Below, piece after piece: positions 25,252-45,275 of a stretch of 64,000 nucleotides of DNA. Made by a program: the position numbers and the translations under genes. This DNA is from Coffea arabica (taxonomy: Eukaryota > Streptophyta > Magnoliopsida > Gentianales > Rubiaceae): positions 13,703,557 to 13,767,556 of the forward strand of contig NC_092320.1 in assembly GCF_036785885.1 (NCBI RefSeq). The letters are read 5' to 3'. The notes under the pieces are model-generated. The model had not been told where the DNA came from. It saw nothing but the letters and a program-made list of their open reading frames with translations, and made no database searches. The first letter of the stretch is position 1. Each line of letters begins with the position of its first letter.

Positions 25252-25738
25252 TAAAAATTTTCAAGGATCTAATGAACTCTATTCTTCAGTATCCAATCCT
25301 TCGTCGAAAAATATTCTTATTTTCACATATTGTGGGATATCATATGACTACTCTACTACTGTATAATTTGCATTAAAGCTTGTCTCTGAAAGCAAAATAC
25401 GAAGCTAATTTTACGTAAAACAAATATTTATCAAATGTTGACTAATTAATTAGCAGGAAGAAAGTTTTATTAAGATTGTCGCCCGAAAAGCAAAATACTA
25501 AATAGTCTCTTTATTTTCTACTTCTTAGGAGACTATTCTTTGGAATTTTGGATACAGGCTCGTCAATCCTCCTCTAATTGAAGTTACACACGTTTGTACT
25601 GCGTGCAATAGCTGTTGGATCAGTTCTTGATGCAGCCTATCTGTGCTTTCGCTGCCCGATGAATAAGATGGAATTTGTTAGTTGTGAGTAATGTTGGACA
25701 AATATGGGACTAGAAATTTGTTAAGACACTTATATATA

Positions 25739-26062
25739 TTAACATATCCAAGTAGTTAGGGAGACAAAGGTGGAGATAAATGTTGCATTGCCCGAAGTTG
25801 AATTGGCGCTCTGGTGAAGTAAACAGCCATAGTTGCAGAAGAATGATCCATTTGGAGATGGCCCTTGTGGATGACATTTACGTTTGTAACAATTATCAAT
25901 ACAAACATCAACGTTGTTTTGATCCGAACAATCTACTAGGCACTTTGCAAAGCAATGATCATGCCGAACAATTGGATCGTCAGGCCAAGAGAAAGAATCA
26001 TCACAAAATACCAGGTCTGTCATAGCTGTTAGTAGTACTAATGCTAGCCATGCAGTCCTCAT
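25739..26062 (-). CDS. Thionin-like secreted Cys-rich peptide, copy A (divergent)
   Basis: Exon 1 of a secreted cysteine-rich peptide. A signal peptide (MRTAWLALVLLTAMTDLVFC) is followed by C-x3-C-x3-C, then C-x3-C-x4-C and FFCNYGCLLHQ, the ladder shared with the four other copies in this cluster. It is more divergent than copies B-D and has an insertion (SFSWPDDP) before the first mature cysteine. A second exon probably lies near 25600-25660, but I cannot assign it confidently, and the 3' part looks degenerate. The family is plant-specific and thionin-like; a role in defence or reproduction is inference. Confidence 0.6.
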   Translation of the reverse strand: MRTAWLALVLLTAMTDLVFCDDSFSWPDDPIVRHDHCFAKCLVDCSDQNNVDVCIDNCYKRKCHPQGPSPNGSFFCNYGCLLHQSANSTSGNATFISTFVSLTTWIC

Positions 26063-28454
26063 TTTTTAGGTATTTCCTGTGTATTTGATTACCTTAACCT
26101 ATTGCTAAAGTTAAGAGAAGTGTTCATAGGTCTTGTTCCTTGGATCAAGCATGGATTCATTTTTGTCGTCTAAACTTAGCTAATCCTTTGTTGGTTATAC
26201 ATAACTACCATACTTGGGAGTGAAAACACAGTTTTTCGATGACTATATTATGGTTTTCAACTTTTCTATATTCCACCGTATTCATGCAAGATACACATCT
26301 CCGAAATTAATGCAACTTTTATCAGTTCTCAACTGTCATCAAAAGATCACGATTCCTTTCGAAAAGGGTTGAAAAATAATTTTGCGGGTTGATTTAGTCC
26401 TATATTTCAAATTAATTAACTTTTTTTGAGCAAGTAGGGATTATTTTTCTTTGGGGGGTCAGTAGCCAGGGAGTTAAACTCCTATCCGATAGATCAGGGT
26501 CCAAAATCTTGGACGGCAGGTTTGGATAGGGAGGAAGTACGAGAGTGGGGGACAAAAGAGGTGGTTGTCACTCCTAAATTTTCATTCATCATATGATTCG
26601 CAATTCAGGGGGTGCTTTCCAGAGTGATTTTAGCAAAATTTAACTCTTCTTGGAGAGTAATTTGTAGTTTAGTTTAGCAAAACAAAAGTCTAGGTAATTT
26701 TCATTTTTTCAAAAACATGGTAATCTACATGCACACACTCCTAAATTTTTGTCACAATACAAGCAGCTTTGAAGTATCACATGTCACTTGTTGCAGTTTT
26801 ACCAAGAATATTTGGTGCTTGAATGAGGAGTAAGGTAAATTAAGCATTAGTACTAAAATAAGGGAAATTTTCACTTCACACCCTCCATGTTTCCATTTGA
26901 TTTTTTAGTTTTGTCATTTTCTTTTAGACACTTTACACCCTCAACTCATCAAAATGGCCAAAAAAACTCTGACTACTAAAATTATGAACAAAAATATACG
27001 ACCACACACTTATAATTATAGATACACATACTAGTGTAGTTTTAGAAATAGTGTGCGAGATTATGTTAATTTAGGCTATCTGGACTACTTTAGAATGTGC
27101 TTGACTAAAACCAAAAAAAAAAAAGATAAAAGACAGCTTTAGGATATAATGTGAAATTGGTCACAGAAGTAGACCCCTCTCATCTTCATTTGCTCATTTA
27201 CCGGTCCATCTACAAATCCATCCATTAGGAGGATAACTCAATGTGAGGGCTTGATAAATAGCAAGAGTTGGTATCATTATCAATATTTGCTTTTTAGTTG
27301 ATTTGATAAATGAGTCCTCTAGTTCCCTGTCATATATATATAGTAAATGGGAGGGTTTGAATCTGAAATCTCTCACTTACATTCCCTCCTCCGAATCATC
27401 TAATCCGTCCTTCCACCAATCTCTAATTGTTAATGCTTTTTCTCTTCAATCCTTCAAGAGCGCTCATATTATTCAAGATTGTCCAAAAAAAAAAAAAAAA
27501 AGAAAGAGAGAAGAAGAAGAAATATGTTGTATTCAGCAATTGAAATCTTGGTCAATGCCATTATAAATGGATTTTGCTGAAAAAAAATTTCTAAGGCATT
27601 TATGTAACTACCTCGTAATTACCAATATGTACCCCTTTTCCTTCAAGGAGGCTTTATATTAACCAAATAATTGAAGGAAAATAATCTTTTTTTTTGTGGT
27701 TTAAACATTTTCCTTTAAATAGTTTCAACATGATCCATCAAATAATTTCTCTGTTATAAATGAAGTCTTACAATTGGTTGCAAATTAATGCGTACTACTT
27801 TAGGTTGAAACCAACTGCATGCAAATCACTTTCTATTTTGTGATAACAAGTAACAACTTCAATTCCAGTCTAATACAAGCGGTGGTTGGTGATGTACTAA
27901 AATCTGGTCTAAACAATAAGTAGTCCATTTTGTGTTGCATCGATTAGCAGTAAATAAAACGATTGTTGGGCCAGGCAAAAAAAAAAAAAAATTCTGAAAT
28001 TTAACAGGCTCGCTCACGTACATCAATTAAGTGACCTTTGCATTAAGTGGATTTTAATCAAAATAAAGAGACTTTTGCATCCAGAAAAATATAGCCTATC
28101 GATCGTTATTTTTATGCTTTCTTAATTAAAGCCACTTTAGAAGTAACTCTTGGGAAAACAGTTGATATCAGTACAAATAAGCAATAATCTTGGGAGTGAT
28201 TCGGGAACCACGTACGCATTGTGTATAAATAAAATCATATGTACTGGACAGCAAACTAATTGGAAGGGTTTTGGTTTTGCAATCTGGACCATAATTCAAC
28301 ACTCTCAAAAGTTACTATCAATGGCTTAATAATCAAAATTTTCGAAAGTTAAGTTAATTATCTCAAAATGATATGTCATTTAGTTTGTCGGCCGCAAGAA
28401 ATGTTGAGTTAAAAATGAGAAAACTTAGAAGCCTTTGAGATAGGTCATAACTTA
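26063..28454. other. Intergenic region inside peptide cluster
   Basis: No gene is supported. The stretch 27340-27505 contains GGGTTTGAATCTGAAATCTC, resembling a tRNA-type B box, and ends in a long A run, so it may be an old SINE. Other A and T runs occur. Confidence 0.35.
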
Positions 28455-28549
28455 TACATGTACACAGGAGCCAGAATGCCACAAATATTATTGAAGACAT
28501 AAAGGTGACGATTAATTAGAAATTTCACCAACTTACTTCAGGCGACTAA

Positions 28550-28552
<3 letters not shown>

Positions 28553-28584
<32 letters not shown>
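28553..28584. repeat. (AT)n microsatellite
   Basis: About 15 AT dinucleotides downstream of peptide copy B. The run is absent at the corresponding place in copies C and D. Confidence 0.9.
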
Positions 28585-28587
<3 letters not shown>

Positions 28588-28816
28588 CGGATCGGAATTT
28601 GGAAGAAAGTTTCATAAGGATTGACTGTCTTTCTTCGCTTCATTCTTTTAGTAATCCAATATACAGAAATAGAAAATACATCGTAAAGTTCATATTTGTG
28701 AAGTTCAAACGAATAGTCCCTTTATTCCTATTAGTAACTAATATATAGGAGACTATTTTGGACTCCATTGTCATACTACTGGCTATGGCTAGCCTCACAC
28801 CAGCTTGGCTGGCTAC

Positions 28817-29259
28817 TTAATTGCGATGTGGTAGCTTGCAGTAGCTCTCCCCACAGTTGTCCATGCAGCTGCGAAATTTCGCCTTATCTGTCCAAGATCA
28901 AAATATAATCATTAAGAAATTGAAGTGTTTTTCTTTTTTTTTTTTGCCCCCTTGCAAATGTGTATAAACTTTGTGCAGACAGAGTATTTGAGAGAACTGG
29001 AGAGATGACTAAGTCGTTGTTTACCTGTAGAAATGTGAGAGCATTGACGAAGGGAACAGCCAAGCTTGCAGAAAAATGGTCCATCCAGAGTTTTTGGAAC
29101 CTTATCAGAGCAAACGGATTCACAGTGGAGCTTACAGTCCTCAGAAAGAGTATCTGAGCAGAAGTGCATGCAAGCCTCAGAACAATCATCGTCATCAGAA
29201 TGAGCACTGAAAACCAAGAATGCCATGATAAACACTGCTGATATCCACTGGTTTCTCAT
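28817..29259 (-). CDS. Thionin-like secreted Cys-rich peptide, copy B
   Basis: Exon 1 is 29259-29025 and exon 2 is 28887-28817. The intron runs from ACAG/GTAAAC to GACAG/ATAAGG, and the product is 101 aa. A signal peptide (MRNQWISAVFIMAFLVFSAH) precedes a 12-cysteine mature region with spacing C-x3-C-x3-C-x7-C-x3-C-x3-C-x13-C-x3-C-x4-C-x12-C-x3-C-x4-C. The end reads MDNCGESYCKLPHRN. The peptide should be secreted and disulphide-rich. Its family is plant thionin-like, with tapetum- or defence-type relatives known. The coding part is almost identical to copy D. A TATA box lies 96 bases upstream of the start. Confidence 0.85.
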
Positions 29260-29354
29260 CTTTTTTTTTTTTTTTTTTTAAAGGATGCTGATCCCTAGTG
29301 AAAAACAGAAAATGACAAAGAACTCTGTACAACGAAGTAAAATCTAGAGGTGGG

Positions 29355-29363
29355 CTTTTATAG
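29355..29363 (-). promoter_or_regulatory. TATA box of peptide copy B
   Basis: CTATAAAAG on the minus strand, 96 bases upstream of the start codon. It is conserved at the matching position in copies C and D. Confidence 0.65.
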
Positions 29364-29707
29364 ATTTTTCCCCCCTTGGCTCATGGGATCATTCTTGTCT
29401 GTTCATCTAACAAACTTCAGGTTTGACTAACGTCTTCGCCACAAAAAAGGACACGAATGTTGAATGACTATCTTATAATATGCATGGACTAAGTTTCAGT
29501 TCGAAATTTATGTTTAAGAATATGTTCACCACACGTTTACTACTTTTCAACCAGCACTAGGCTTGAAATTTGGTTGAGGGTAAACATTGGAAGAATTTCC
29601 TTCCAGTTCCAATCTGGTCCAAACTCTTGCATATTTTCAGATAACATCAAATCACACATGGATTAATTTGTCCGGTGAACACTAATAAGCCTGCCTTTTA
29701 GCTAATG

Positions 29708-31331
29708 GGTGAATTCTTAGTTTATGATGGAAAAAAAAAAAAGAATTCTACAACGAGGACGTTTCCTGGAGGGGTTTCTGTAAATGGAAGTCTTCGCATT
29801 TCCAAAATGCGAGCTCGAATCGAGCTCGCATTCCGGAAATGCGAGCTCAGTGAGCTTTTGGTATCAATTGATTGGTGGGGTGAAGGGAGAAGTGGGCAAC
29901 AGAAGGGAAGTAGTAATTTTGTTTTTCTTGTTGGGCTCTTAAATTTGGGGGGGCGATTAGCATTTCCGTTTGGGTTCTTCTATACAAAAATAATCTTAGA
30001 TGGGTTATTGTACAGACTAAGAGAGGATGAGGGGAGCGAGTTAAATGTTTCCTGGTGAACAGAAGTTGCTGGAAGAAAGCAATCCCAAAAAAAAAAAAAA
30101 AAATTGAAGAAAAAAATAATCAGTTCCGAGTATCTATTTTTTCTTAGGTGCCTATTTCACTGCCTAGATTGATATGACTTTGCCTTCGGATAAATTACAA
30201 TTTGGTTGAAGACGGACGAATGCAGTTTCCTTGTTCTCAGCCTTTTAACTTATGTTTTCCAACCTAAGTTTGAATTTTGGATGGATGGATGGTAATTGGT
30301 GAGAGAGTCTGAGAGATGGTAAACAAGTCGGTTGCCAAGACCCCATTTCAACTTCAGTATGTCAAATGTTGAGTAACCGGTGATTTTCATCTAAAAATAT
30401 CTACATTCGCATCAATTGTAAAAGGTAAAACACGCAAGATTTAATCGCTAGATATTTGATTTAATTTTTTTCTTTTCCTTTTCAACTACCAAACAAATAA
30501 CATGCACCTCATAAAAATAACTTATATAATTTTTAATTAGCATTGCGTTATGGAATTTCTAAAATTACAATAAAAAAATTGTAACAGATATTAATGACTA
30601 TTAATTATTAGATTCTTATAACTAATATTCATCGGTGTCAACAAATAAATACGATTCATTAATAACAAAGGAAAATTAGAATTTGATAAATAAATTTATT
30701 TCACAAAAAAGGATCAAAAGTTAGTATTTTATTCATAAAATATAGTCAACACCTTACATGTTAATAATTTCATTCTATTTTTACATTGATCTAATTTATT
30801 TCCACCATTTAAATGTATTATAATAAAATAACGTATTTCATAAATTTTTTTTAAGGAATGCGAACGCGCATGCGACATCTTAAAACATTTTGTTTTAATA
30901 CAAAAATATAAATCTCTGCCTCCAAAAAAAAAAGCAAAAAAATTTGCATCTCTGTAATGCGAGAAAGTAAATTCAGACTACTAAAGAATGCATTGAAAGT
31001 TTACCTAACACATAATATCTGATGATGGATGTTAACACATAAGATGAAGGAAAAGCGCTGGCACCTCAAATATTAAAACTGGGGACACTCACTAATACCT
31101 GCAACTAATAAAGTAATTCAAGACCTGGTGACAGTTGAGAATAGCTTACCAGTCTTTTAGAATGCGAGCTCAACAGAGCTCGCATTTCACGAATGCGAGC
31201 TCTCAACAGAGCTCGCATTCCTCTCCTGAACTCGCATTTTACGAATGCGAAGACCTCCGACAGAATTCCTCGCTACAATCACCCCTTTTGTAGAATTTTT
31301 TTAAAATTCATCACAAACTTAGAAATTTCTC
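29708..31331. mobile_element. Mutator-like element with palindromic GCGAGCTC motifs
   Basis: TTTAGCTAATG flanks both sides (29697-29707 and 31332-31342), a direct repeat of 9-11 bp. The ends inside it are inverted repeats: GGTGAATTCTTAGTTTATGATGG on the left, and GAGAAATTTCTAAGTTTGTGATG on the complement of the right, then ATTCTACAA and AGTCTTCGCATT. Just inside both ends are repeated AATGCGAGCTC units in both orientations, forming near-perfect palindromes. I see no transposase, and the 117-codon frame at 29705-30058 resembles nothing known to me. Size, target duplication and structure suggest a non-autonomous Mutator-like element. It is inserted upstream of peptide copy B and is absent from the duplicated units of copies C and D. 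Confidence 0.8.
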
Positions 31332-31996
31332 TTTAGCTAATGCATTAGCACTGGCCAGGAGCACTACCAACTTCTGACAACTTTTCATATTTGTCGCTTC
31401 AAATAAATCAAACGTTTGCACCTTCATATTATTGTATAATCTTGTGATCTAATGGTGCTTTTGATAGTACTTTGTACATATAATTCGCAAGCCACTTTGT
31501 GGAATAAAAAAAAGAGAGAAATGGATACTATATAGTAAGACTAAGCTTAAACTTCAAAGTGTTTTTGAGTAAATTACTAGCTAATCTTTGTCTTTTCAGC
31601 AAAAGGGTAATTTTATATGGCAAATTTTTAGTCTTCTTGGTGAGTAAAATGTAGTGAACTTTCCTGGCAATTTATCTTTCTTCAAAAGACAGTAAGATAA
31701 TATGGCTTGTTTATACTCTATAGCGCACTGGTGCTTGGTTGGGGGATGGATACGATTAGATTTCTTATGCTATACACGGATAGATGGTGAACAGCTTCAA
31801 TAGACTCTCAACTTTTATTGATCATACGCTTTGGGCCCTCAACTTTAAAAGTTTCTATTAGATCTTCTAATTTTCGAATTTGATTTTAATTGGTCCATAC
31901 GGGCAAATGTGCCTAAGATTATTTTCGATTTACCCACTAAGATTTAGTACAATGTTAGCATGACCCCACCTAAATTTATAATGAAGAAGAAAAACA

Positions 31997-32387
31997 ATGG
32001 TGATAGTAAGGGAGGCAGCTCAATGCAAAGATGGGATTCAAGAATTTCTGTCATATTCCATGAAACAATTTCTACCAAACACTGCCAACAATCTCTCCAT
32101 GTTTTTGCCTATAGACAACTTGCTTGACAATCCAACATCGACCGATAAGGACTACGAAGGCGGGGATGGTATATGGAATTTTGTGGACTATGATTCTAAA
32201 GAAGTCGATACTGACACTTGGGATAACTGCAATGAGGATGAAGAAGACGAAAGACGGTCAAATAATGTTGCAGAGGAAGCTGGGGACCTCCACAATTATC
32301 TTCTCGGCCTTGAGAATGGAGGACATATGTGCTATTTGTCTAGATGGTTTTGTTGAAGTTGATCATGAAGACGATAGTATTGATTAA
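31997..32387 (+). pseudogene. RING-type relic R1
   Basis: An open frame of 119 codons (31997-32356) starts MVIVREAAQCKDGIQEF and continues through an acidic region (DEEDERRSNN) to LLGLENGGHMCYLSRWFC and a stop. In the next frame the same DNA reads ICAICLDGFVEVDHEDDSID and then stops. This is the first half of a RING domain (C-x2-C) like that of the intact gene at 44376. The RING is therefore out of frame with the N-terminal part and lacks its second half, so it cannot bind zinc as a RING. It is a relic, or possibly a short novel protein. Confidence 0.7.
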
Positions 32388-33566
32388 TTTCCACCATTAA
32401 TTACTTGCTGCTAAAGAAATATCACTTCTAACCTGCCCAGTGATTCTGCAATTAATCTTATCAATTATGAACTTGTTTGTAATATTTTATAGACATAATG
32501 TTAATATCTACTGACTACTGTTGTACGTATAGGCCTAATTTCAGCTTTTATATAAGTAATTTTGCTATTGATTGATTTTGTAACCTTTTAGGAGTTTTTG
32601 TTTGCTTCTCTTTCTCCACACACATGGTAGGGTTAATCTAACTATTAGTCTAAGAGTTTTTTTGGCACAAGCAAGTTTACCTGTATGATATTAGTTTCTC
32701 TCGTGGTTCTAAGTTAAAACTAAGTGAATGCTAATTTTTTGGTGTACATTGTTACTTTGCACACTGAAATTAGTGAAGCAAGGATAGATAACTCAATGTG
32801 GGGAAGATGAAAGGTAAAAATCTTGACAAATCAAAATCAACATCTCTTTCTTCGCCAATATATACATCATCGTAACGAACATTTTCACTTTTTTTTCCCG
32901 TAAAGATCCTATTTATGTGTTAATTAATTGTCTCTTCTGCTTTTAGATTCAGTCCTATTGCACACTATAGCTCTCCCAGTAATTGTGACGCACCCTATAC
33001 AATTGCGTAGCTGCATTCATGATGTTTCTGAGACTGAGAGCTATGACGCACCCTATCTTTAAGCGTCACACTATTTTGATCGTAGCAAAACCTGTTCTGG
33101 CGACAAATAGGGATGATATCTACTAAATCTGCATTTATTTTTTGGCTGATAAATGCTAAATTTTGCAGTTTGATAGAAAGAAAATGAAGGTCCGGAATGG
33201 AATAGTTACAAGCGGTGATACACAGTGAGATTCATTGGAGCGAGAATGCCATAATTATTGAAGAAATCGAGGTGATAATTTAGAAATTTCCCCAAGTAAT
33301 TCAGACGATTAATGGTAAACTTTCGTGATAAATAGATCGGATTTACGAAGAGAGTTTCATTAGGATTGACTTTGTTTCTTCACTTATGTATTATTACAAT
33401 CATTAAAAGTTTAAAACCAAAAGACAGAAACAGAAAATACATCATAAAGTTCATATTTGTGAAGTTCAAATGAGTAGTCTCTTTATTCCTTTAAGTAACT
33501 AATAGGAGACTATATTGGACTTCATTGTCATGCTGGCTGTAGCCTTCCACCAGCTTGACTAGCTAC

Positions 33567-33997
33567 TTAATTTCCATGGTATTGCTTGCAGTAGCTCTCC
33601 CCACAGTTGTCTGTGCAGCTGCGAAATTTCGCCTTATCTGTCCAAGGACAGGTCAAAATATAACCCGTTAAGAGATTGAAGTGTTTTTCTTTATTTTTTT
33701 TCCCTTGTAAAAATGTATATAAACTTTGTGAGAAATGGAGAGATAACTAAGTAGTTGTTTACCTGCGGTAACGTGAGAGCATTGATGAAGGGAACAGCCA
33801 AGTTTGCAGAAAAATGATCTATCCAGAGTTGTTGGAACTTTAAGAGAACACGCAGATTCACAATGGCTCTTACAGTCCTTAGAAAAAGAATCTGTGCATT
33901 GGTGCATGCAAGCTTCATAACAATCATCCTCATCAGAATGAGCACTGAAAACCAAGAATGCCATGAGAAACACTGCTGCTATCCATGGGTTTCTCAT
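33567..33997 (-). CDS. Thionin-like secreted Cys-rich peptide, copy C
   Basis: Exon 1 is 33997-33763 and exon 2 is 33637-33567, with the same intron position and phase as copies B and D; the product is 101 aa. The signal peptide is MRNPWIAAVFLMAFLVFSAH, and the twelve cysteines have the same spacing as in copy B. The mature part differs at many non-cysteine sites (for example HQCTDSFSKDCKSHC), and the tail is ESYCKQYHGN. The reading frame is intact. Its likely role is a secreted disulphide-rich peptide, with target unknown. Confidence 0.85.
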
Positions 33998-34095
33998 TTT
34001 TTTTTTTTTTTTTTGGTCTTTGGATGCTGATCACAAGTTAAGAAAACAAATAAAAGACAAAGAACTGTGTACAACCAAGTAGAATCTTGAGGTGG

Positions 34096-34104
34096 GTTTT
34101 ATAG
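34096..34104 (-). promoter_or_regulatory. TATA box of peptide copy C
   Basis: CTATAAAAC on the minus strand, 99 bases upstream of the start codon, in the same place as in copies B and D. Confidence 0.6.
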
Positions 34105-34635
34105 ATTTTTTTCCTCTGGTTCGTGGGATCATTCTTGTGTTTCATCTAACTAACTTCAGCTTTGATTAACGTATACGCCATAAAGTGAAAACACGAACAT
34201 CGAATGACCGTCTTATAATATGTATGGACTAAGTTTCAGTTTGAATTTTGTCGGAGAATGTTAATTTACCACACGTTTAATACATTTCAACCAGAAATTC
34301 TGTTGAGGTTAAGTGTTGGAAGAAAAATCCTCCAATTCCAATCCGGTCCAAACTGTTGGATATTGTCAAATAACATCAAATCAGACATGTATGAAAATTT
34401 GTCCTGTGAACACTAATCCGCTTCAAACAAACAAAACATATGCATCTACATATATCACATAATTTTGCGATTCAATGGTGCTTCTGATGGTACCTTCAAG
34501 TATATTGTATGCCACTTTGTGGAAAAAATCTAGTAAGACTAAGCTTACAATTCAAGTGTTGTTAAGCAAATTACTATTCTTTATATTTTCAGCCAAAAAA
34601 AAAAGTGGTAATTTTAGCAAAGTTTAACTATTCTT

Positions 34636-35870
34636 TATGGACTTGCCTGTTTCCTTTTCGACAAGAGTCATAAAATTTTTGAAAGTTGAAAATGCTTCAG
34701 ATTTTTTCTGCAAAAAATAGACTCTAGTTTTCGACTATAATCATCAATAAACATCATAAAATAACATTTTTCACCATTAGATGATGGATTTATGGGTCTG
34801 CATAAATCAAAGTAAACCAGCTCCAACATAAATACACAATGTTTGCCAACGACACACTCTTGGGAAGTTATCCCGATATTGTTTGCCAACGACACACTCT
34901 TCACAAACTTCTGATGGAATTGTGATTTGAGGTAGATTAGCCACCATATTTTTCTGCTGCAAAGTTTTAAATCCACCAAAATTCAGGTGTCCATAACGAA
35001 AATGCCATAATCATGCCACATCTTTCGATTTTTCTATACAGCATACAACAAAATTAAATTTTGTTGTCATTGATCGAAGAATCTTCTCGACAATGGTGAC
35101 GTCTTCCAAATTCTCTCCATGGATTCTCATCTTGTTAGTGATTGCCATCGTTCTTGCAAAATAATCTGTGACTGACTCCCTTGACTTTATGCGTAAAATC
35201 TCAAATTCGGTCTGAAGAGGTTGAAGCTGCACCCGCTTTGCCTTTGCATTTCCTTGATACTTTTTTCATGGAGTTCCAAATCTGTTTAGAGGTATTTTTG
35301 CTAAAAATTGTCTCCAAAATGACTCGAACAAAAACTTGAAAAAGATAATTTTTGGCTTTAAGATCTTTCAGTTTCAATGCTTCCAACTCCATTTTCTGCA
35401 CCTATGACAATACTACTATGGCTGTTGGCTCTGCCACTCCAGATTCGACAACTTGCCAATAGGCCCAATACTCCTTAGATCTCAAGAAGTTCTCCGTTAG
35501 CATGCTCCAATGATCATAGTGACCATAAAGCAAAGAATTGCTGGCTGCACAAAATTGTCGGTGGCCATCATAATTTACTAATACAATTCTCACAACTCAT
35601 TTTTGTTTTCACTCACGAGCCTAGCTCTGATGCCATTGTTACAATTATTGAGAAAAATAATAAGAGAAGCAAAGGACGAGTGTTTATTTCTTTGTAAAAC
35701 TGACACAACTCATAACATGAAATTTCTCTATTTATAGAATTCAAAACAACTCCACTAACTATTCCACTAACATTATATACTTGACTTGTAGCCAAAAACC
35801 TATCATTGCTACTAATAACTAATAGTGATTAACTATTAACTTTTTCTGCTATTTTCACTCTTTAATTAAA
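34636..35870 (-). mobile_element. Ty1/copia LTR retrotransposon fossil
   Basis: A truncated element of the copia family on the minus strand. One LTR lies at about 35637-35870. Just inside it is a primer-binding-type site resembling the complement of initiator methionine tRNA (ATGGCATCAGAGC). Next come gag-like frames, then a piece resembling the zone leading into integrase. The second LTR, most of pol and the other end are missing. It is broken in several places and no longer codes for a whole product. It sits exactly between the two tandem units. Confidence 0.8.
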
Positions 35871-35881
35871 GAAGAAAAACA

Positions 35882-36247
35882 ATGGTGATAGACTGATAGT
35901 AAAGGAGGCAGCTTATTGCAAAGAAGGGATTCAAGAATTTCTATCAAACACTGTCAACAACCTTTCCCTGTTTTTGCCTATAGACAACTTGCTTGACAAC
36001 GCAGAATCGACGGATAAGGACTACGAAGTCGGGGATGGTATATGGAATTTTGTAGACTCTGATTCTAAAGAAGTCGATATTGACACTTGGGATAACTACA
36101 ATGAGGACGAAGAAGACGAAAGACGGTCAAATTATGTTTGCAGAGGAAGCCGGGGACCTGCACAATTATCTGCTCGGCCTTGAGAATGGAGGGCATGTGT
36201 GCTATTTTTCTAGATGGTTTTGTTGAATTTGATAATGAAGACAAGTA
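35882..36247 (+). pseudogene. RING-type relic R2
   Basis: The second copy of the RING relic. It matches R1 from ATGGTGATAG onward but meets stops after a few codons. The longest remaining frame starts at 35974 (MPIDNLLDNAESTDK) and runs through the acidic region. The end still carries the half-RING sequence (equivalent to CAICLDGF) out of frame. It is more decayed than R1. Confidence 0.75.
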
Positions 36248-37371
36248 ATTAGTTTCCACCATTAATTACTTGTTGCTAAAGAAATATTACTCCTAACCAG
36301 CCCAGTGATTTTGCATTTACTCTTATCAATTATGAACTTGTTTGTAATGTTGTACAGACATAACTAGGTTAATATTTACCGGAATGGTTCAGCCTCAGGG
36401 GTGGAACGTTGCATGTTATACGTATACCTAATTTTAGCTTTTTATATGTAATTCTGTAACCTTGTTAGGAGATTTTATTTGCTTCTCTTTCTCAACATAA
36501 TGGTAGGAATAATCTATCTATTAGTCTAAGAATTTTTTGGCACAAGCAAATTTACCAGTATGAAGCAAGGGTAGATAAATCAGTGTGGGGAAATCAAAAT
36601 TAATATCTCTTTCTTTCCCCTGTAAAAACTTGAAAAGGAATACAACATCGTAAGGAACTTTTCATTTTTTTATGCATAGACCCTACTGAAGTGTTAATTG
36701 TCTCTTCTGCCATTAAATTCACAAGACTATTATTCGTCGGAATATTCAGTCCGATTACATGCTACTTATAGCTCTCCCAGTAATTGTGATGCACACTATA
36801 CAATTGAGCAGCTGCATGCATAATGTTTCTGAGACTGAGAGCTATGGCACCTATCCTTGAACGTCACACTATTTTGATTGAAAGAAAATCTCTCTTCTGG
36901 CGACAAATAGGGATGATATATGCTAAATTTGCATTTGTTTTTTGGTTGATAAATGCTAAATTAGCAGTTCGATAGAAAGAAAATGAATGTCTGGAATAGT
37001 TACAAGGGTGATACACAGTGAGATGCCTTCGAGCGAGAATCCATAATTATCGAAGAAATGAAGGTGAGAATTTAGAAATTTCACCAATTTAATTCAGGCA
37101 ATTAATGATAAACTTTCGTCATAAATAGATTGGATTTATGAGGAAAGTTTCATTACGATTGACTTTCTTTCTTCACTTATGTATTATTACATTCATTAAA
37201 TGTTTAAAGCCAAAAGACAGGAATAGAAAATTCATCATAAAGTTCATATTTGTGAAGTTCAAGTGAATAGTCCTTTTATTCCACCAGCTTGACTCGCTAA
37301 TAGGAGACTATTTTCGACTTCATTGTCATACTGCTGGCTATAGCTAGCCTCACACCAGCTTGGCTGGCTAC

Positions 37372-37812
37372 TTAATTGCGATGTGGTAGCTTGCAGTAGC
37401 TCTCCCCGCAGTTGTCCATGCAGCTGCGAAATTTCGCCTTATCTGTCCAAGATCAAAATATAATCATTAAGAAATTGAAGTGTTTTTCTTTTTTTTTCCC
37501 CCCCTTGCAAATGTGTATAAACTTTGTGCAGACAGAGTATTAGAGAGAACTGGAGAGATGACTAAGTAGTTGTTTACCTGTAGAAATGTGAGAGCATTGA
37601 CGAAGGGAACAGCCAAGCTTGCAGAAAAATGGTCCATCCAGAGTTTTTGGAACCTTATCAGAGCAAACAGATTCACAATGGAGCTTACAGTCCTCAGAAA
37701 GAGTGTCTGAGCAGAAGTGCATGCAAGCCTCATAACAATCATCGTCATCAGAATGAGCACTGAAAATCAAGAATGCCATGATACACACTGCTGCTATCCA
37801 CTGGTTTCTCAT
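37372..37812 (-). CDS. Thionin-like secreted Cys-rich peptide, copy D
   Basis: Exon 1 is 37812-37578 and exon 2 is 37442-37372; the product is 101 aa. I chose the ATG at 37812, aligned with copies B and C, rather than the in-frame ATG 12 codons upstream, because the signal peptide MRNQWIAAVCIMAFLIFSAH starts there. The twelve cysteines and tail (MDNCGESYCKLPHRN) are the same as in copy B; the mature peptide differs from B at about one residue (CYEAC versus CSEAC). The flanking DNA, in contrast, resembles copy C, which suggests gene conversion. Confidence 0.86.
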
Positions 37813-37909
37813 CGTTTTTTTTTTTTGGGGTCTTTGGATGCTGATCACTAGTTAAAGAAACAAATAAAAGACAGAGAACTGTGTACAGCCAAGTAGAATC
37901 TTGAGGTGG

Positions 37910-37918
37910 GTTTTATAG
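37910..37918 (-). promoter_or_regulatory. TATA box of peptide copy D
   Basis: CTATAAAAC on the minus strand, 98 bases upstream of the start codon, conserved with copies B and C. Confidence 0.6.
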
Positions 37919-38440
37919 ATTTTTTTTGTTCATCTAACTAACTTCAGCTTGATTAACGTATACGCCACAAAGTGAAAACACGAACATCGAATGACCATCT
38001 TATAATATGTATGGACTAAGTTTCAGTTTGAATGTTAATTTATCACACGTTTAATACATTTCAACCAGAAATCCTGTTGAGGTTAAGTGTTGGAAGAAAA
38101 TTCCTCCGATCCGGTCCAAACTGTTGGATATTGTCAAATAACATCAAATCAGACATGTATTAAAATTTGTCCCGTGAACAGTAATCTGCTTCAAATAAAC
38201 AAAACATATGCATCTACATATATCATATAATTTTGTGATTCAATGTTGCTTCTGATCTAGTACCTTGCAAGTATATTGTATGCCCCTTTGTCGAAAAAAA
38301 TCTTGTAAGACTAAGGTTAGAATTCAAGTGTTGTTAAGCAAATTACTATTCTTTGTATTTTCAGCCAAAAAAAAAAAGAGGTAATTTTAGCAAAGTTTAA
38401 CTCTTCCTGGTAAGTGGAATGTAGTTTTGTATTATAAATT

Positions 38441-39480
38441 TCTTGGTAATCTGTCTCACTTCAAAACATAATTTTGTTTGGTTGAAGCACTCAATGTTTT
38501 TTGGGGCAATAGATGCTCTTAGATTTGCTTATTCTGTATGTATACTTCAATTAAGCAGCTATGTTGTCTCACTTATGGCAGTATCACTGTGTCTAGATTG
38601 TGTACAAATTATACTAGACCTTGGAGCCTTGAGTTGAAAAGGTAAAAGAAGAAGAAAAAAGTTCACAGGCAAAAAGGGTAAGGTAAAAGAAGAAGAACAG
38701 AAATGGTACTCATTTCTTGATTCGTATGCGACTTCTATTTCAAGACTGAACTCTAAGAATATTTACCTTGCGTTTTGTACTTTAAAACCAGCACTGGATG
38801 TGTGTTAAGGGAAAGGGTTGGAAGAAAATCAGCCTCTCACGCTACTCTTTTTGTGGCACTGTATTATTCATTGTGTTTTTCTTAACTTCAGAAATGCAAG
38901 GAAATACATGTCCAGGCTCTAAATGCAGAAGAAGGGGAAATAATTGAATCAAAGATGTTCAATTGGGCAAATTTTTTCTTTCTCTTTTTTTTTTTTTTGC
39001 AACATTTTGAACGGTGCGAGGGGGGAAGAAAAAGAGAAATCAAAGGGAGAAATGAGTAACAGAAAATTGTAAAGTGATTGGCACAGAAAGGAAAAGGTGG
39101 AAGGAATGAGATCAAAGAAATAAAATGTTTAAGCCGAAGTGTATTACTGGCATCAAATTAATGGAGCGAATCAATCTTTGTTTATCCTGAAATCCTAATA
39201 TGTTACCATTTTGAGTAACAAATATCCTGTGCCGTGATCCTTTTTTGTGCGCCAATCTTGAAATTTAATTTGCTGGATTGTATGAATTATTTCATGGATA
39301 TATGGGTGCTTATTGGGCACTTGTTAAGATATATTTTAGATGTTATATTTCTAGAAACATAAAATTAATTATAAAAAGTAAATAAATAAAAATTAATGGA
39401 CAATGTCAAACACAGCAACGAATCTCTTTATTGCTAACTATATATGGCTTTTTACATTCCAGCTATGAATTGCTGCAGAT
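38441..39480. other. Intergenic region between peptide copies D and E
   Basis: No supported gene. Short frames on both strands are low-complexity (K-rich or L-rich) and coincide with A and T runs. Confidence 0.35.
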
Positions 39481-39520
39481 TACGAGTTGAGGTCCGAAAG
39501 CCTTATGATCCGAAAAATTG

Positions 39521-39940
39521 CTAACTCTTCGAACAATTGTTCAAGCAAATGGCCAGTTGCTCCTTATCTGCAAATAACAAACAGAATCAGCTGCTAAAGC
39601 GAAAAAAAAAAAAGAGTCTGTTACACTAAACCTTTCAAATTTTTTTTTTTTTTTGAAACTGAATCCTAAACAGAAGTGTAGAGAGATCGAGCAAGAGATT
39701 ACCAGAATGAAATTTGCTGCATTGGTTAACAAAACAGCTATGCTTATTCTGGGAGGATTCATCTGCAGGTGGATGGCACCTTCTTAGGCACTGCTGAATG
39801 CAGAAATTAACCCGAGGTGGAGGCACGTCCGCGCATTCTTGAAGGCAATCATCCTCGCAATCATTGGCAGCTTCTACAGATACAAAATGGAGAAGTAGTG
39901 CCAGGGACATGATGATAACTACTGGTGCCAGCCTTGCCAT
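39521..39940 (-). CDS. Thionin-like secreted Cys-rich peptide, copy E
   Basis: Exon 1 is 39940-39703 and exon 2 is 39567-39521, with the intron CTG/GTAATC to TTGCAG/ATAAGG at the same place and phase as in copies B-D. The product is 94 aa. The signal peptide is MARLAPVVIIMSLALLLHFV; the mature part shows C-x3-C-x3-C, then C-x3-C-x3-C, then C-x4-C and a final CLNNC. It is diverged in sequence from B-D and has a shorter tail. A TATA box (CTATAAATA) lies about 70 bases upstream. Confidence 0.8.
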
Positions 39941-40010
39941 TGTTATGAAGCTTCACTTTTTTTAATATAATGGAAAACAAAATGGTAGAGAAGAAACTAG
40001 ACAATGGACT

Positions 40011-40019
40011 TATTTATAG
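40011..40019 (-). promoter_or_regulatory. TATA box of peptide copy E
   Basis: CTATAAATA on the minus strand, about 70 bases upstream of the start codon of copy E. Confidence 0.6.
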
Positions 40020-40409
40020 GTAGAAATGATTATTCACATATAAAGTGTTTACTCTATTAAAAGAGGAGAATTTGGTTAATGATTAATTGATAGATACGGG
40101 AATTGAATGACTTACCATTTACAAGCGTTATAATCATTTATTCGGCTCTTCATTTTTATTTTTTTTAGAGAGATTTTAAATTTTACAGCTGAGATACTTA
40201 AACTGCTAGACGATGCTCTAATGCAGGAAAGTTTCTAGCGAAGCATCCAACTTGGGCTCTTTGAAATATGGGCGTGGAATCGCAGCTTACACTTTGGGTT
40301 TTTTTTTTTTGGGGGTAATCTTTTATGTTTTTTTTTTTAATTGTGGTCCTTACAAATCTGCCACTATTCATCTTGTTTTTTTTTTTTTTTTTGGCTTTTA
40401 TTTTTTTGT

Positions 40410-40640
40410 TGAGTCAAACATATTCCAAATGACTAAACTTAACCCGACCACTTTTTTTTTTTTATTTAAAGATGAAGTTTGAAAACTCTGTCAATCATTA
40501 TGTGATCTTTTTTTATATAATTTTTTTAAGCATTATGTGATCAAAACATGGATTAACTGGAAGGATGCCAGTGAACTTAATCAAGTTGAACACTATGGTG
40601 TTGAAATTTCTTTGTTTATTTTAACATGCTTAAAATTATA
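40410..40640 (+). repeat. Diverged direct repeat, first copy
   Basis: CATATTCCAAATGACTAAAC, then GTTTGAAAACTCTGTCA, ATGATC-like stretches and ATCAAGTTGAACA reappear in the same order and orientation at 41045-41240. The identity looks moderate, with small gaps. The element type is unknown. Confidence 0.6.
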
Positions 40641-41044
40641 TATGAATTTAACTTGTTTATTTCTAGAGTTAAATTCAAACGAATTTTTATAAAGTTGAAC
40701 ATAAATTGTTTGAATATTTTACATGTGAATGTTAAATTAAATGCTAATTGACAACTAGCATTTTATTTTGCAATTCGGTTTTCATTTTTCTTTTATGAAA
40801 TTTTGTCCAACCTAACATTCACATGATCTATCGTGTACATATACATATTAACAATTATTACTCTCCCTTGCATTTATATACTTTCCCTATTTAATCTTAC
40901 CTAATATACTTTTTCTATTTAATCTTACCTACCCCTTTGTATTTAGTTACTTTCTCTAATTAATCTTACATTTTAAAAAATATGACGCATAACATATATT
41001 TTAACAAGTACCCATAGGGCACCCTTTAGATAAACTCTTCATTT

Positions 41045-41240
41045 TTATCGAGTAAGTAAAAAATATTCCAAATGAGTAGACTTAACTCGACCACTTTTTG
41101 CTGATTTAACGATGAGTTTGAAAACTCTGTCATGCATTATATGATCAAATCATGGACGAACAGAAGGACTGTGACTGACCTAATCAAGTTAAATATTTTG
41201 ATGCTTAAACTTATTTGTTTATTTTAAAGTGTTTAACATT
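41045..41240 (+). repeat. Diverged direct repeat, second copy
   Basis: Counterpart of 40410-40640: ATATTCCAAATGAGTAGAC, GTTTGAAAACTCTGTCATGC and AATCAAGTTAAATA. The two copies are about 640 bp apart. They could be terminal repeats of a small element or a local duplication. Confidence 0.6.
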
Positions 41241-42121
41241 ATGTATTGATGTAAGAGAAGTAAAAAAAATGAAAAATAAAAGTTGATTACTGGAAGAGAA
41301 AAAATGAAGGAACGAATAAACAAGGAGAAAATAAAACAATGTACAGTAATAAGGGTAGTTTTGTCCTAAAATATCAAGTAAGGGCAAAGTTCCCGTTTGA
41401 TGAGTTTAGGGGGTAAAGTGCAATTGAGGGTAAAATTTAGGGGGGGGGGGTTCAGTGCCTTTAACTAGAATTAAAAAGAAGAAAAAGAGAAATCAAAGAG
41501 GTTATTGCTAGGAGTTAAAGTGAAAAAAATTAGAGAAGAAAATTGAACTGTACAAAACCAAAACTTAAGGAAGGAGGAGGGGGGGGGGGGATTAAGTGTT
41601 CCAATTCCATGTCAAAATTCAATGTAATATTCCATCCAATTACGCGTTCCTAAAGAATCCTAAACACCCTCGTAAAAGTTGTTTAACAGACTTTTACTAT
41701 TTAAATACAGGATTTGTAACCTAACCTGGCATTAATGATTTTTTTTTTTCTCTGTACGCTTCATACTTTTATTGATAAGCTGATAAGTTTACACGAAGAT
41801 TGGGAGCTCCCCATACCAATTTATATCACAGATTGAATGGTAATCCAAACCTGACATTAATGCTGCTAATAAACAAGTAATTCTTCGGTTGCTAATAACA
41901 ATGAAGTAGTTCTTCTGTTTAGCCAATAGCCTCTTGGGCTCTTGGTACCACCAAAATATTTAAGTTTTGGTGGGGGTGGGAAGTCATCCGATAGGAAAAT
42001 CTCGTCGGCTTCTCCTTCCTTTAAACTAAATTAAAGTAGGTTATACAAATATTATTGTTGCGATAAAAAAAGACTCTCTAATCGAGTAATTGTTCACTTC
42101 CCAAGCTCAAAAAAAAAAAGG

Positions 42122-42532
42122 ATGATGACAATTGTGGAGGCAGCTCATTGCAAAGAAGGGATTCAAGAATTTCTATCGTATAGCGTCAAAACCCTCAACG
42201 AAAATCAGAAATCCGTCAAACAATTTCTATCAAACACTGTCAACAATCTTTCAGGTTCTCGCCTACAGACAACTTCCCTTGTGATCCAGCTGCAGCGGAT
42301 GAGGAAGATGAAGATGATGATATATGGTATTTTATAGATTACAATCAAAAAGAAGTTGAGAATGATACTTGGAATGGTTACAGGAAGGTGGAAGTAGATG
42401 AGAGACTGTCTTCTTTAGATTATATTACAGAGGAAACCGAGGACATCCACAATTACCTGCTCGGCCTTGAGAATGGAGGATCAATGTGCTATTTGTCTAG
42501 ATGGTTTTGTTGAAGTTGATCATGAAGATAAT
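42122..42532 (+). pseudogene. RING-type relic R3
   Basis: The third RING relic. It begins MMTIVEAAHCKEGIQEFLSY, similar to R1, with an extra segment (NENQKSVKQF). The frame then shifts near 42260-42300, after which the acidic region and LLGLENGGSMCYLSRWFC follow in another frame. As in R1, the half RING (CAICLDGFVEVDHED) lies out of frame with that end. It is not part of the recent 2.6-kb tandem duplication. Confidence 0.75.
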
Positions 42533-43128
42533 ATGTTATCAATATTAAGTGTTACTTTTTTGTTTTAAAGGAATGCTATTCATAATCAGTATAATGATTT
42601 TGCCTCTCATGTAAAAGAATTCAGATTAATCTTTCCCTTCAATATGATAGATTCGAAACTTTTTTGTAGTGTTGAATAGAAATAGCTGGATAGGTTAATG
42701 TTCTACTTGTATGTACATACCCTAATTTTAGTTTTAACTCAATTGATTTTGCCTTTTATCTATTTTGTAACCTTTAGGAATTTTTATTTGCTTGAATACT
42801 AATATTTTGGTCCATCATGGGGCTTTGCCAACTCAACTTAGTGAAGTGAAGATTGTCATCTCATTGTGGGGACGATGGAATTTGAAAAAATAACTTGAGA
42901 ATCAAAATAAAGATATCTATCTTTGCCCCATAAAATAGTTCAAAGACAAGAACTGAAAATGAATTATAACATCGTCAAGAACTTGATTCATATTCTTTTA
43001 CCCAAAACGATCTTATTCATTTGTAAACTGTCTCTTCGAACTTTTACAAGATTATTTTTCTCTTGAATATTCATTATTCAGTCCTCCACAATAATCAACG
43101 GTTCAAAGCTGTGCATTGCATGCGATTA

Positions 43129-43552
43129 GGCCCGCCAACAGGTCAAGTTTGGGTCGAAATCATTATTCCGACCGAACCCGTCATGCTATACCGGATCCGA
43201 ATTCGGTCCGCAGGTCTTCTACTCTATATCTTTGAACCGGGTCCGACGGGTCTCGGATCCGAGTTGAGTCTACCTGGGAATTCGGGCTATTATATTCATA
43301 AATATATATTGGATAATAGTCATACTGAAAATTGAAGTAAATCTGGGTATTATATTAATAAATATATATATTAAATTATTAATTCATTTATATTTGGATT
43401 TGGGTTGAAATACTATATTCCACATCCGATCTACATTTTTGTTTGAAAAAACGAATCTGAATCCAAAGAACGAAATTATATCCCTACTCGTACTCGAAAT
43501 AATTTGACGGATCCGGTCTAGGTCTTGATCCAGACCCGGACCGTTGACAGGC
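43129..43552. mobile_element. Probable MITE with GGTC/GGGTC-rich ends
   Basis: The left end (GCCCGCCAACAGGTCAAGTTTGGGTC) and the complement of the right end (GCCTGTCAACGGTCCGGGTCTGG) form an imperfect inverted repeat. Subterminal zones are rich in CCGGATCC, GGGTC and ACCCG words, and the centre is AT-rich with TATTATATT repeats. No clear target duplication is seen. A non-autonomous DNA transposon is the best guess. Confidence 0.5.
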
Positions 43553-44375
43553 GTACATGCCATAGTTCTCTAACAATTTTGAGGCAGCCTAAACAATTGT
43601 TTAGGGGTTCTCGGAGATATGGCATCCAAGTAAGCTTATTTAATTTTTTTTTTGCCTGGCCTACAAACAAATGGCATACAAAATGCAATTTTGAGCCAAA
43701 TTAATTCTTTAATTAAGGTTAATTTCTTATAGTTGTTTAAGAAATAATTCTACAAAAAGAGCTGTTTGGTCTAATTATCTCTCATTGAGTTGGTAAGGTC
43801 ATTAATCTCAAAAAAAAAAAAAAAAAAAAAAGAGAGAAAGTGTCTTATAAGATCATGATTTACCACTTATTGCTTAATTCAGTTATGTATTATAAAGTTT
43901 GGAGATTCACCAACCAAAATTTTACCACAAAAATTATTTATTTATTTATTGTACGAAAATTTATTTATTTTTTTAATTCATATTTTTGAATTAGAATTAT
44001 ACCTTCTTTTTAGTTTGTAAATTTAGCGCCTCCCCCTCCTCCCCCCCCTAGCTTTATTATAATTGGCTCCATGACTGCAAATTTCATTTTGTGCAAAACT
44101 TATATATTTAGGCTCCTAAATATCAACCGGTTTAAATTGTTGAAAAAGTACAACACCGTACTTGATGTCAATGTTATTACCCTCAACATTTCTTAAGGAT
44201 TATTGGAGTCCCAATATTATCAATCAACATTCAATTAGGAAACACTCCGAATCCTCCTATGAATCGGTGGGAAACAGTAACGTGCTATACGTGTATTATA
44301 AATATATTAGACTACTACAAGGCAAAAAACTCCGTACCTATTTCCCTTTTCTGTTGAAGGAAAGAGCCAAGAGCA
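43553..44375. other. Intergenic region before the intact RING gene
   Basis: No gene is supported. There is an A run of over 20 bases at about 43810-43831 and a poly-C stretch near 44031-44048. The promoter of the RING-H2 gene must lie in its last few hundred bases. Confidence 0.4.
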
Positions 44376-45275
44376 ATGGCGGTGCTGGAGAGAGTTGAAT
44401 GTTGTAACGTGCGTCTCTTCAGGTGGAATGAAAATCTTTTCAAGAACAAAAAAGTATCAGATTCTCAAGGTCTAGCCCTGTTTGTTATCACAACCGTTTT
44501 GGAAAACTCCAAAAGCTATGGATTACCTAAAAATCATCGTCATGAATGTATTGTCTCTTTCAATCTCCCGGACCTATTCGCCCGAGACAAGAATTTAGGA
44601 CTGAAACTCGTACAGGCTACTCAACAATTTTCATCGTCGGAAGACACTTGCAAAACTCTTGGAGACTCGATTTCGGGTTTCTTGTTTACACGTTTCGACT
44701 TTGATGATGATCCCCAAGCCAAGATTCAACCGGATTCTCCTAAGACAGTCATTGTTGTTGAAGTTTCGCGTTCTTGGTTCGTTCTTTCGGACGGCACGCG
44801 TCGTTCTAAAGTTGCAATCTCCCGGCTTTTGCCTCCGCCTACGATGATTCCCCCTCCTCGAGGGACTTCAGAGGATGGAAACGAGGACAAGGACGACATA
44901 GCTGATCATGAGGGAGTCGAGAAGAATTCGTTTCTACGCTGCTTAAGGGACTGTTTAGGTGTGAGGATGGGAAGGCAGGGGAGGATGGGAAAATCCCTTA
45001 CTCGGGATGACCCTGGAAGAGGAGGTTTTGTGGAAATTTCGCCGGCCGTAGTCGGGAGAAAACGGAAGTGGGAGGATTTTGACAAATCAGTGGATACTTG
45101 CGCCATTTGTTTAGAGGGCTTTGTTGGAGTGGTGGACGAGAAAATTTCCATTACCAGTTGTTCTCACGTTTTCCACAAGAATTGTATATTAAGATGGCTG
45201 ATGTTCAACAGCAATTCTTGTCCAACCTGTAGACTTGTGCTGCCTCTGGGCTTTAATATGATGAAGATGAATTAA
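44376..45275 (+). CDS. RING-H2 finger protein, probable E3 ubiquitin ligase
   Basis: An intronless frame of 299 aa. The C-terminal RING-H2 has all ligands: C242, C245, C262, H264, H267, C270, C282 and C285 (TCAICLEGF, SCSHVFHKNC, SCPTC). The N-terminal 180 residues are not recognised; a basic stretch GRKRKWE (227-233) could be a nuclear signal. RING-H2 proteins recruit E2 enzymes and ubiquitinate partners; the substrate is unknown. It is the only intact RING gene of the cluster: the three relics upstream (R1-R3) carry a related first half (CAICLDGFV versus CAICLEGFV), but their N-terminal parts do not align clearly with it. Confidence 0.86.
   Translation: MAVLERVECCNVRLFRWNENLFKNKKVSDSQGLALFVITTVLENSKSYGLPKNHRHECIVSFNLPDLFARDKNLGLKLVQATQQFSSSEDTCKTLGDSISGFLFTRFDFDDDPQAKIQPDSPKTVIVVEVSRSWFVLSDGTRRSKVAISRLLPPPTMIPPPRGTSEDGNEDKDDIADHEGVEKNSFLRCLRDCLGVRMGRQGRMGKSLTRDDPGRGGFVEISPAVVGRKRKWEDFDKSVDTCAICLEGFVGVVDEKISITSCSHVFHKNCILRWLMFNSNSCPTCRLVLPLGFNMMKMN

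What the first reader, a model, noticed from the sequence alone, without database searches (positions are those of the whole stretch)
25739..45275. Interleaved cluster of secreted 12-cysteine peptides and RING-type genes
Five secreted Cys-rich peptide genes (all minus) alternate with three RING relics and one intact RING-H2 gene (all plus): A, B, R1, C, R2, D, E, R3, R4. The opposite strands and repeated pairing suggest that peptide and RING ancestor were a linked pair and expanded together. Linked pairs of a secreted peptide and an intracellular E3 are not something I know as a described plant system. This is the best candidate for a new system in the window, but co-function is only inference.
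Basis: partly seen in the sequence, partly recalled or inferred. Interest (0 to 1): 0.72.

Follow-up and report, generated by a model that had tools for sequence, protein, structure and literature searches.

The report
Duplicated peptide genes, hitchhiking RING fragments
A small cluster of plant genes for secreted, disulfide-rich peptides was copied in tandem and carried along pieces of a long-dead RING gene, so the alternating pattern looks like a passenger of duplication rather than a new two-part system.

Summary
The order A, B, R1, C, R2, D, E, R3, R4 and the strands are real and recur on a homologous chromosome (C12) of the same assembly. Details need correction. B, C and D encode intact 12-cysteine peptides (two exons in the models). 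A is broken in the window, with an intact copy on C12. E has 10 cysteines and its C12 copy has a stop. R1-R3 keep only the start of a RING (R2 not even both first cysteines), in the same wrong frame in all six copies, so truncation most simply predates duplication. R4 is an intact RING-H2 gene whose detected likeness to R1-R3 is limited to a short RING stretch.

The alternation comes mainly from tandem block duplication: R1+C (31984-34633) and R2+D (35869-38406) are 82-85% identical, and B's unit is an older third copy. R3 shares only the R segment, and E split off much earlier, so E-R3 is not shown to be a copy of that pair. B and D share a gene-conversion tract. There are three R fragments for five peptide loci here, and for six on C12.

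I read it as ordinary birth-and-death evolution of thionin-like/Ole e 6-like peptides with a hitchhiking pseudogene. Co-function was untestable and lacks sequence support.

The parts
25620..26062 (-). Peptide gene A (exon 1 25781-26062, exon 2 remnant 25620-25651): broken in this window; intact 12-Cys copy on C12 (exon 1 12549750-12550031)
28817..29259 (-). Peptide gene B, intact model, exon 1 29025-29259, exon 2 28817-28887, 101 aa, 12 Cys
28780..29200 (.). Gene-conversion tract shared by B and D (approximate): B-D 96-99% inside; outside B-D 75-88% and C-D 81-97%
29706..31332 (.). 1.6-kb insertion between B and R1, absent from C12, flanked by an 11-bp direct repeat
31984..32688 (+). R1, truncated RING-gene fragment; 119-codon open frame upstream, RING kept only to CAICLDGFVEVDHEDDSID then stop, in another frame
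31984..34633 (.). Duplicated block U1 (R1 + C)
33567..33997 (-). Peptide gene C, intact model, exon 1 33763-33997, exon 2 33567-33637, 101 aa, 12 Cys, coding sequence identical to its C12 copy
34636..35868 (-). Segment between U1 and U2 with an integrase-like (rve, below cut-off) fragment; lies within the stretch that aligns as one block to C12
35869..36563 (+). R2, truncated and frameshifted RING-gene fragment (first motif CAIF, not CAIC)
35869..38406 (.). Duplicated block U2 (R2 + D), 82-85% identical to U1
37372..37812 (-). Peptide gene D, intact model, exon 1 37578-37812, exon 2 37372-37442, 101 aa, 12 mature Cys plus one in the signal segment
39521..39940 (-). Peptide gene E, 94 aa, 10 mature Cys, divergent; C12 copy has an internal TGA
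42109..42793 (+). R3, truncated and frameshifted RING-gene fragment; 71-73% identical to R1/R2 over the R segment, plus a short downstream piece
44376..45275 (+). R4, intact single-exon RING-H2 gene, 299 aa; full-length match found only here and on C12

Best explanation
This is a birth-and-death cluster of small secreted, acidic, disulfide-rich plant peptides of the thionin-like kind. A peptide gene lay beside a fragment of a RING-type gene whose RING had already been lost. Unequal crossing-over copied that peptide-plus-fragment segment in tandem, giving B-R1-C-R2-D; B's unit split off first, then U1 and U2. Later gene conversion made the B and D genes alike, insertions broke up the array, A lost function on this chromosome and E on the homologous one. 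R1-R3 are therefore passengers (pseudogene fragments), and R4 is a neighbouring RING-H2 E3-type gene with no shown link to the peptides. The intact peptides (B, C, D, and A' on C12) are most likely secreted and fold as helical, Cys-x3-Cys-bridged domains that act outside the cell in defence or reproduction. Shown: anatomy, duplication, shared truncation, conversion pattern, conservation on C12. Inferred: order of events, splicing, secretion, fold and function.
For: U1 and U2 are direct repeats of 2.65 and 2.54 kb, 82-85% identical in the aligned pieces; B's unit matches both at 78-81%. Divergences (K80): R1-R2 0.108, R-to-peptide spacer 0.139 (confidence ranges overlap), B-C flank 0.203, R1-R3 0.362, E-D gene body 0.73, homologous chromosome 0.005-0.039; the fragment is thus not clearly more conserved than its spacer. 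The CAIC frame runs to a stop without another Cys in five of six copies and with one stray Cys in the sixth (R3 on C12); all six have the same frame offset and R1-R3 have alignable downstream DNA. Three R queries found six places each, all in this cluster and its C12 copy (only the best candidates are scored). The B-D conversion pattern is on both chromosomes. Order is conserved on C12, 31332-38431 aligning as one 7.1-kb block at 96.7%. Peptides: 12 Cys at spacing 3-3-7-3-3-13-3-4-12-3-4 in B, C and D, hydrophobic N-terminus, net negative; none of 12 Cys columns changed between B and C or C' and D'. The second half has 3+3 Cys as in the thionin acidic domain (PMC8279376, passages); the first half is closest in the PDB to Ole e 6 (E 0.046).
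Against: The upstream frame of the R fragments shows past constraint: R1-R3 dN 0.278, dS 0.684, p 0.007; R2-R3 p 0.029; R1-R2 p 0.159. If the truncation is older than the R1-R3 split, the RING-less product was under selection for a time. R1 has the same 119-codon open frame on both chromosomes. The peptides' own constraint is weak in close pairs (C-D p 0.088, B-C p 0.094, C'-D' p 0.034; B-B' dN/dS 0.97 from 1 synonymous and 4 nonsynonymous changes), and in the deeper pair A'-D' 3 of 14 columns with a Cys differ (signal-segment Cys and alignment included). C-D 5' flanks (0.052) are more alike than the rest of the block (0.10-0.14), so more than one event shaped it. No expression data were available.
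Confidence: 0.85

Rival explanations
1. A true linked system: secreted peptide and intracellular E3 co-function (as ligand or toxin and its degrader), kept together by selection; R1-R3 are older E3 copies and R4 the present partner.
For: Order kept on both homologous chromosomes with R4 intact on both. S-RNase/SLF shows that such linkage exists in plants (abstract starts).
Against: R1-R3 lack a complete RING in all six copies. R4 has no blastn match to R1-R3 at E 1e-6. Three R fragments for five peptide loci, three for six on C12. R4-R4' differ by 7 nonsynonymous and 1 synonymous changes, which shows no constraint (p 0.69). Conserved order between such close chromosomes is expected without selection.
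Confidence: 0.04
2. R1 is not a relic but a live gene for a 119-aa acidic protein without a RING, born when the RING was lost; R2 and R3 are its dead copies.
For: Open frame with ATG on both chromosomes; dN/dS about 0.4 in R1-R3 over 73 codons.
Against: R1-R1' dN/dS 0.98 from 1 synonymous and 4 nonsynonymous changes; R1-R2 (0.108) do not clearly diverge less than the spacer (0.139), the ranges overlap; R2 and R3 are frameshifted on both chromosomes; no Pfam match.
Confidence: 0.08
3. The fragments serve as upstream regulatory DNA or divergent non-coding transcripts of the peptide genes.
For: B-R1, C-R2 and E-R3 are head to head.
Against: The fragment diverges about like its spacer between U1 and U2; distances differ (about 1.9 to 2.7 kb) and include insertions; no fragment was found between D and E.
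Confidence: 0.03

Closest known systems
Thionin-like peptides of plant transcriptome surveys (FuThi1 of Filipendula ulmaria, PMC11050963; SlThi1-3 of tomato, PMC8198727)
   Same: FuThi1 is described as acidic, without the typical thionin sequence, with the six-Cys C-terminal domain of thionin precursors (passages seen). The second half here has the same 3+3 Cys arrangement.
   Different: None of those sequences was aligned here. The tomato mature peptides are reported as basic (passage), unlike these. The six-Cys first half with Cys-x3-Cys-x3-Cys repeats was not compared with theirs.
Ole e 6 pollen polypeptide (PDB 1ss3)
   Same: Six Cys as C-x3-C-x3-C ... C-x3-C-x3-C, acidic, reported as two antiparallel helices (passages of PMC8198727); all six Cys align.
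   Different: Weak match (E 0.046, bias 7.7; the next hits, Ara h 1 and a potassium-channel toxin, are at 0.37 and 3.4). Ole e 6 is about 50 aa; the record matched (50 aa) has no room for the second 6-Cys part.
S-RNase/SLF self-incompatibility locus
   Same: Two tightly linked genes, one for a pistil RNase and one for a ubiquitin-ligase F-box protein (abstract starts; secretion recalled).
   Different: There the F-box genes work and the locus is highly polymorphic (abstract starts); here the R neighbours of B-D are truncated, and polymorphism was not examined.
RING-H2 E3 ligases of plants
   Same: R4 has a complete RING-H2 domain.
   Different: Residues 1-176 of R4 matched nothing else in the assembly among the 131 candidates scored of 314.

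Membership tests
Thionin (PF00321) | Mature thionin domain matching PF00321 | tested here: not met
   No PF00321 match in any of the five peptides at E up to 10; in the whole assembly 5 matches, none over the cut-off
Thionin (PF00321) | Two consecutive Cys at positions 3 and 4 (PMC8279376, passages) | tested here: not met
   No CC pair in mature B, C, D, A' or E
Thionin (PF00321) | C-terminal acidic domain with three plus three Cys (PMC8279376, passages) | tested here: met
   C7-x3-C8-x4-C9 ... C10-x3-C11-x4-C12 in B, C, D and A'; E has two plus two. Judged on the number and grouping of Cys; no thionin was aligned
[quoted passage not shown]
   One small intron (125-141 bp) between the two Cys triplets in the seven models B, C, D, their C12 copies and A'; E and its C12 copy also have one (models, no transcript)
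Ole e 6-like | Six-Cys C-x3-C-x3-C-xn-C-x3-C-x3-C motif | tested here: met
   Spacing in B, C, D and E; A' has x3-x4 in the second triplet. The motif was taken from the alignment
Ole e 6-like | Sequence similarity to Ole e 6 | tested here: inconclusive
   Profile E 0.046; Ole e 6 not hit with one sequence at E up to 10
Ole e 6-like | Two-helix hairpin fold | tested here: inconclusive
   Helices at residues 23-37 and 40-50 of exon 1, but mean pLDDT 58, pTM 0.34
Snakin/GASA | 12-Cys motif with a CC pair (PMC8198727, passage) | tested here: not met
   No CC pair; different spacing
RING-H2 E3 ligase (R4) | Complete RING-H2 domain | tested here: met
   PF13639 48.1 bits, profile 1-44 of 44
RING E3 ligase (R1-R3) | Complete set of zinc ligands | tested here: not met
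   Only the first Cys-x2-Cys, of which R2 keeps one Cys, then stop
Linked secreted-protein/E3 recognition locus | Intact E3 component beside each secreted gene | tested here: not met
   Three of four R elements truncated
Linked secreted-protein/E3 recognition locus | Co-expression or genetic interaction | not testable with these tools
   No expression or accession data

The most novel reading that the evidence does not exclude
The R family is a lineage of proteins that lost its RING yet stayed under selection for a time as an acidic RING-less product (R1 open on both chromosomes), co-inherited and co-duplicated with secreted thionin-like peptides and acting with them, with R4 as a present E3 partner.
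Probability: 0.04. Interest if true: 0.6.

Novelty: new member of a known kind. Interest (0 to 1): 0.15.

Why it matters
It shows how tandem block duplication can give a convincing but passive alternation of two gene types. The cluster is a compact record of birth, gene conversion and loss among small secreted peptides, with two homologous chromosomes to compare. If the co-function idea were true it would be a second kind of linked secreted-protein/ubiquitin-ligase locus in plants, but the evidence here points the other way.

Tried and rejected
Rejected: R4 as intact ancestor of R1-R3 (no blastn match at E 1e-6). E-R3 as a copy of the same peptide-R unit (only the R segment and a short downstream piece are shared). 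Snakin and thionin membership. An intact R ancestor elsewhere in the assembly (none found; only the best candidates are scored). Further peptide relatives elsewhere: exon-1 queries found 11 places, all on C11 and C12 in this cluster, and at E up to 10 added only one weak hit on C3 (E 3.2), whose translation showed no such Cys pattern by eye.

Led nowhere: structure prediction of exon 1 (pLDDT 58), so no fold search was run; PDB search with one sequence; literature searches for this peptide family and for a linked peptide/RING cluster (six papers held at least five of six terms; titles and abstract starts seen, none about such a plant cluster). One search looked for Coffea arabica because the matches all lie on contigs C1-C22, often in pairs of neighbouring numbers, which would fit an allotetraploid with 11 pairs. 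Nothing here tests the species, and phased haplotypes are equally possible. No plant genome other than the window's own was available, so comparison with other species was not done.
Full report
What is there. The window lies in an assembly of 1.198 Gb in 131 contigs, on contig C11 at 13703557-13767556. Repeat and self-similarity searches show two direct blocks, R1+C at 31984-34633 and R2+D at 35869-38406. They are 82.0% identical in the R piece and 84.9% in the peptide piece, and the B unit (28467-29686) is 78-81% identical to both. A stretch right of C and of D also occurs, at about 68%, left of R1 (31396-31687), beyond a 1.6-kb insertion, so B, C and D sit in three units of one array.

The second chromosome. 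Contig C12 has the same order: A', X', B', R1', C', R2', D', E', R3', R4'. The stretch 31332-38431 aligns as a single 7.1-kb block at 96.7% identity. The array therefore predates the split of the two chromosomes, whether they are homeologues or phased haplotypes. The matches all lie on contigs C1-C22, often in pairs of neighbouring numbers, which fits either. X' (C12:12551245-12551481) is a further peptide-like locus with no counterpart found in the window; after its first six Cys no second-half Cys motif was recognised by eye in the 600 bases translated.

The peptides. Splicing at a phase-1 intron gives 101 aa for B, C and D, with 12 mature cysteines (D has one more in the signal segment) and introns of 137, 125 and 135 bp. 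Mature spacing is 3-3-7-3-3-13-3-4-12-3-4, net charge -3 to -4, with a hydrophobic N-terminus (secretion is inferred, no signal-peptide predictor was run). C and C' are identical in coding sequence. A in the window has lost one cysteine, has a GC donor and an early stop; A' is intact with 12 mature Cys. E has 10 Cys, and E' has an internal TGA. By alignment and spacing E lacks the first Cys of the seven-to-nine group and the last Cys of the protein, which would fit a bridge between those two; this is inference only. Pairwise dN/dS among B, C and D is about 0.5 for B-C and C-D and only marginally below 1 (p 0.094, 0.088 and, for C'-D', 0.034). B-B' is at 0.97 from five changes, D-D' at 0.23 from six. 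In A'-D' and A'-C' dN (0.56-0.58) is well below a saturated dS.

What the peptides resemble. No Pfam family reached its cut-off. The PDB profile search gave Ole e 6 first, at E 0.046, with all six Cys of the first half aligned; a single-sequence search did not find it. The second half has three plus three Cys, as in the thionin acidic prodomain (PMC8279376, passages seen). A published thionin-like peptide, FuThi1, is described as acidic, without a typical thionin sequence but with that six-Cys C-terminal part (PMC11050963, passages). They are not thionins: no PF00321 match, no CC pair, one intron instead of two in the models. An AlphaFold model of exon 1 was of low confidence and only suggests helices over both Cys triplets.

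The R elements. R1-R3 and their C12 copies align over about 600-700 bp. In all six, the conserved acidic frame (ending LLGLENGG) is out of register with the RING-like frame (CAICLDGFVEVDHED; CAIFLDGFVEFDNED in R2), and that frame ends without the other zinc ligands; the only later Cys is a stray one in the C12 copy of R3. The simplest reading is one truncation before all these duplications. R2 and R3 carry further frameshifts. Three R queries covering the acidic part, the N-terminus and the RING stub each found six places, all in this cluster and its C12 copy. R4 is an intact 299-aa RING-H2 gene. Of its 118 matches two are R4 and its C12 copy, and the other 116 cover only the RING domain and at most the stretch just before it, from residue 177 on (131 of 314 candidates scored).

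Timing. K80 distances are: homologous chromosome 0.005-0.039; U1-U2 0.108 (R) and 0.139 (spacer); B versus C or D 5' flank 0.20; R1-R3 0.36; E-D gene body 0.73. E-D synonymous distance is 1.6, E-C saturated. Between R3 and the other units only the R segment and a short downstream piece matched at E 1e-6, although flanks of that age should still be detectable in part. So the peptide-R pair was copied together within B-D, but E-R3 is not shown to be an older copy of the same pair.

Gene conversion. Over about 28.78-29.20 kb B and D are 96-99% identical (97-100% on C12) while C-D is 82-89% (80-89% on C12). In the other 100-column windows C-D is 81-97% and B-D 75-88%, leaving out the ragged ends where B-D falls to 59 and 41%; in one of these windows the two are equal at 81%. 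Gene bodies: B-D 0.028, C-D 0.146; 5' flanks: B-D 0.209, C-D 0.052. Conversion between B and D over the gene, before the chromosomes split, explains this.

Results against the plain reading. The acidic frame of the R elements shows past constraint (R1-R3 dN 0.278, dS 0.684, p 0.007; R2-R3 p 0.029; R1-R2 p 0.159), and R1 is open on both chromosomes with dN/dS 0.98 from five changes. A RING-less product may therefore have been used for a time. R4-R4' differ by seven nonsynonymous and one synonymous changes, which shows no constraint either way (p 0.69). Three of 14 Cys-bearing columns differ between A' and D', and one of 13 between A' and C' (the signal segment is included).

Verdict. The alternation is real but is best explained by tandem block duplication that carried an already truncated RING-gene fragment along with a peptide gene. 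Co-function was not testable here, and what the sequence shows speaks against it. Interest is low.

Noticed in passing
29706-31332: Insertion of 1.6 kb present on C11 only, flanked by the 11-bp direct repeat TTTAGCTAATG (single copy at the C12 empty site), with short degenerate inverted ends by eye and AATGCGAGCTC palindromes near 29.8 and 31.2 kb. A repeat of that length recalls MULE-type elements (recalled, not tested).
   Followed up: partly
34636-35868: Fragment with an integrase-like (rve) match below cut-off (E 0.0035) between U1 and U2; it lies in the block shared with C12, so it is older than the chromosome split.
   Followed up: partly
L007 / C12:12551245-12551481: Sixth peptide-like locus X' on C12, first six Cys kept, second half not recognised; no counterpart found in the window.
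   Followed up: partly
C12:12562858-12576366: About 13.5 kb of extra sequence between D' and E' on C12 compared with the window.
   Followed up: no
31997-32356: R1 open frame of 119 codons kept on both chromosomes; the acidic frame shows dN/dS about 0.4 against R3, odd for a family with the RING already lost.
   Followed up: partly
39521-39940: E lacks two Cys, one in the C7-C9 group and the last one, a hint that these two are bridged in the 12-Cys relatives.
   Followed up: no
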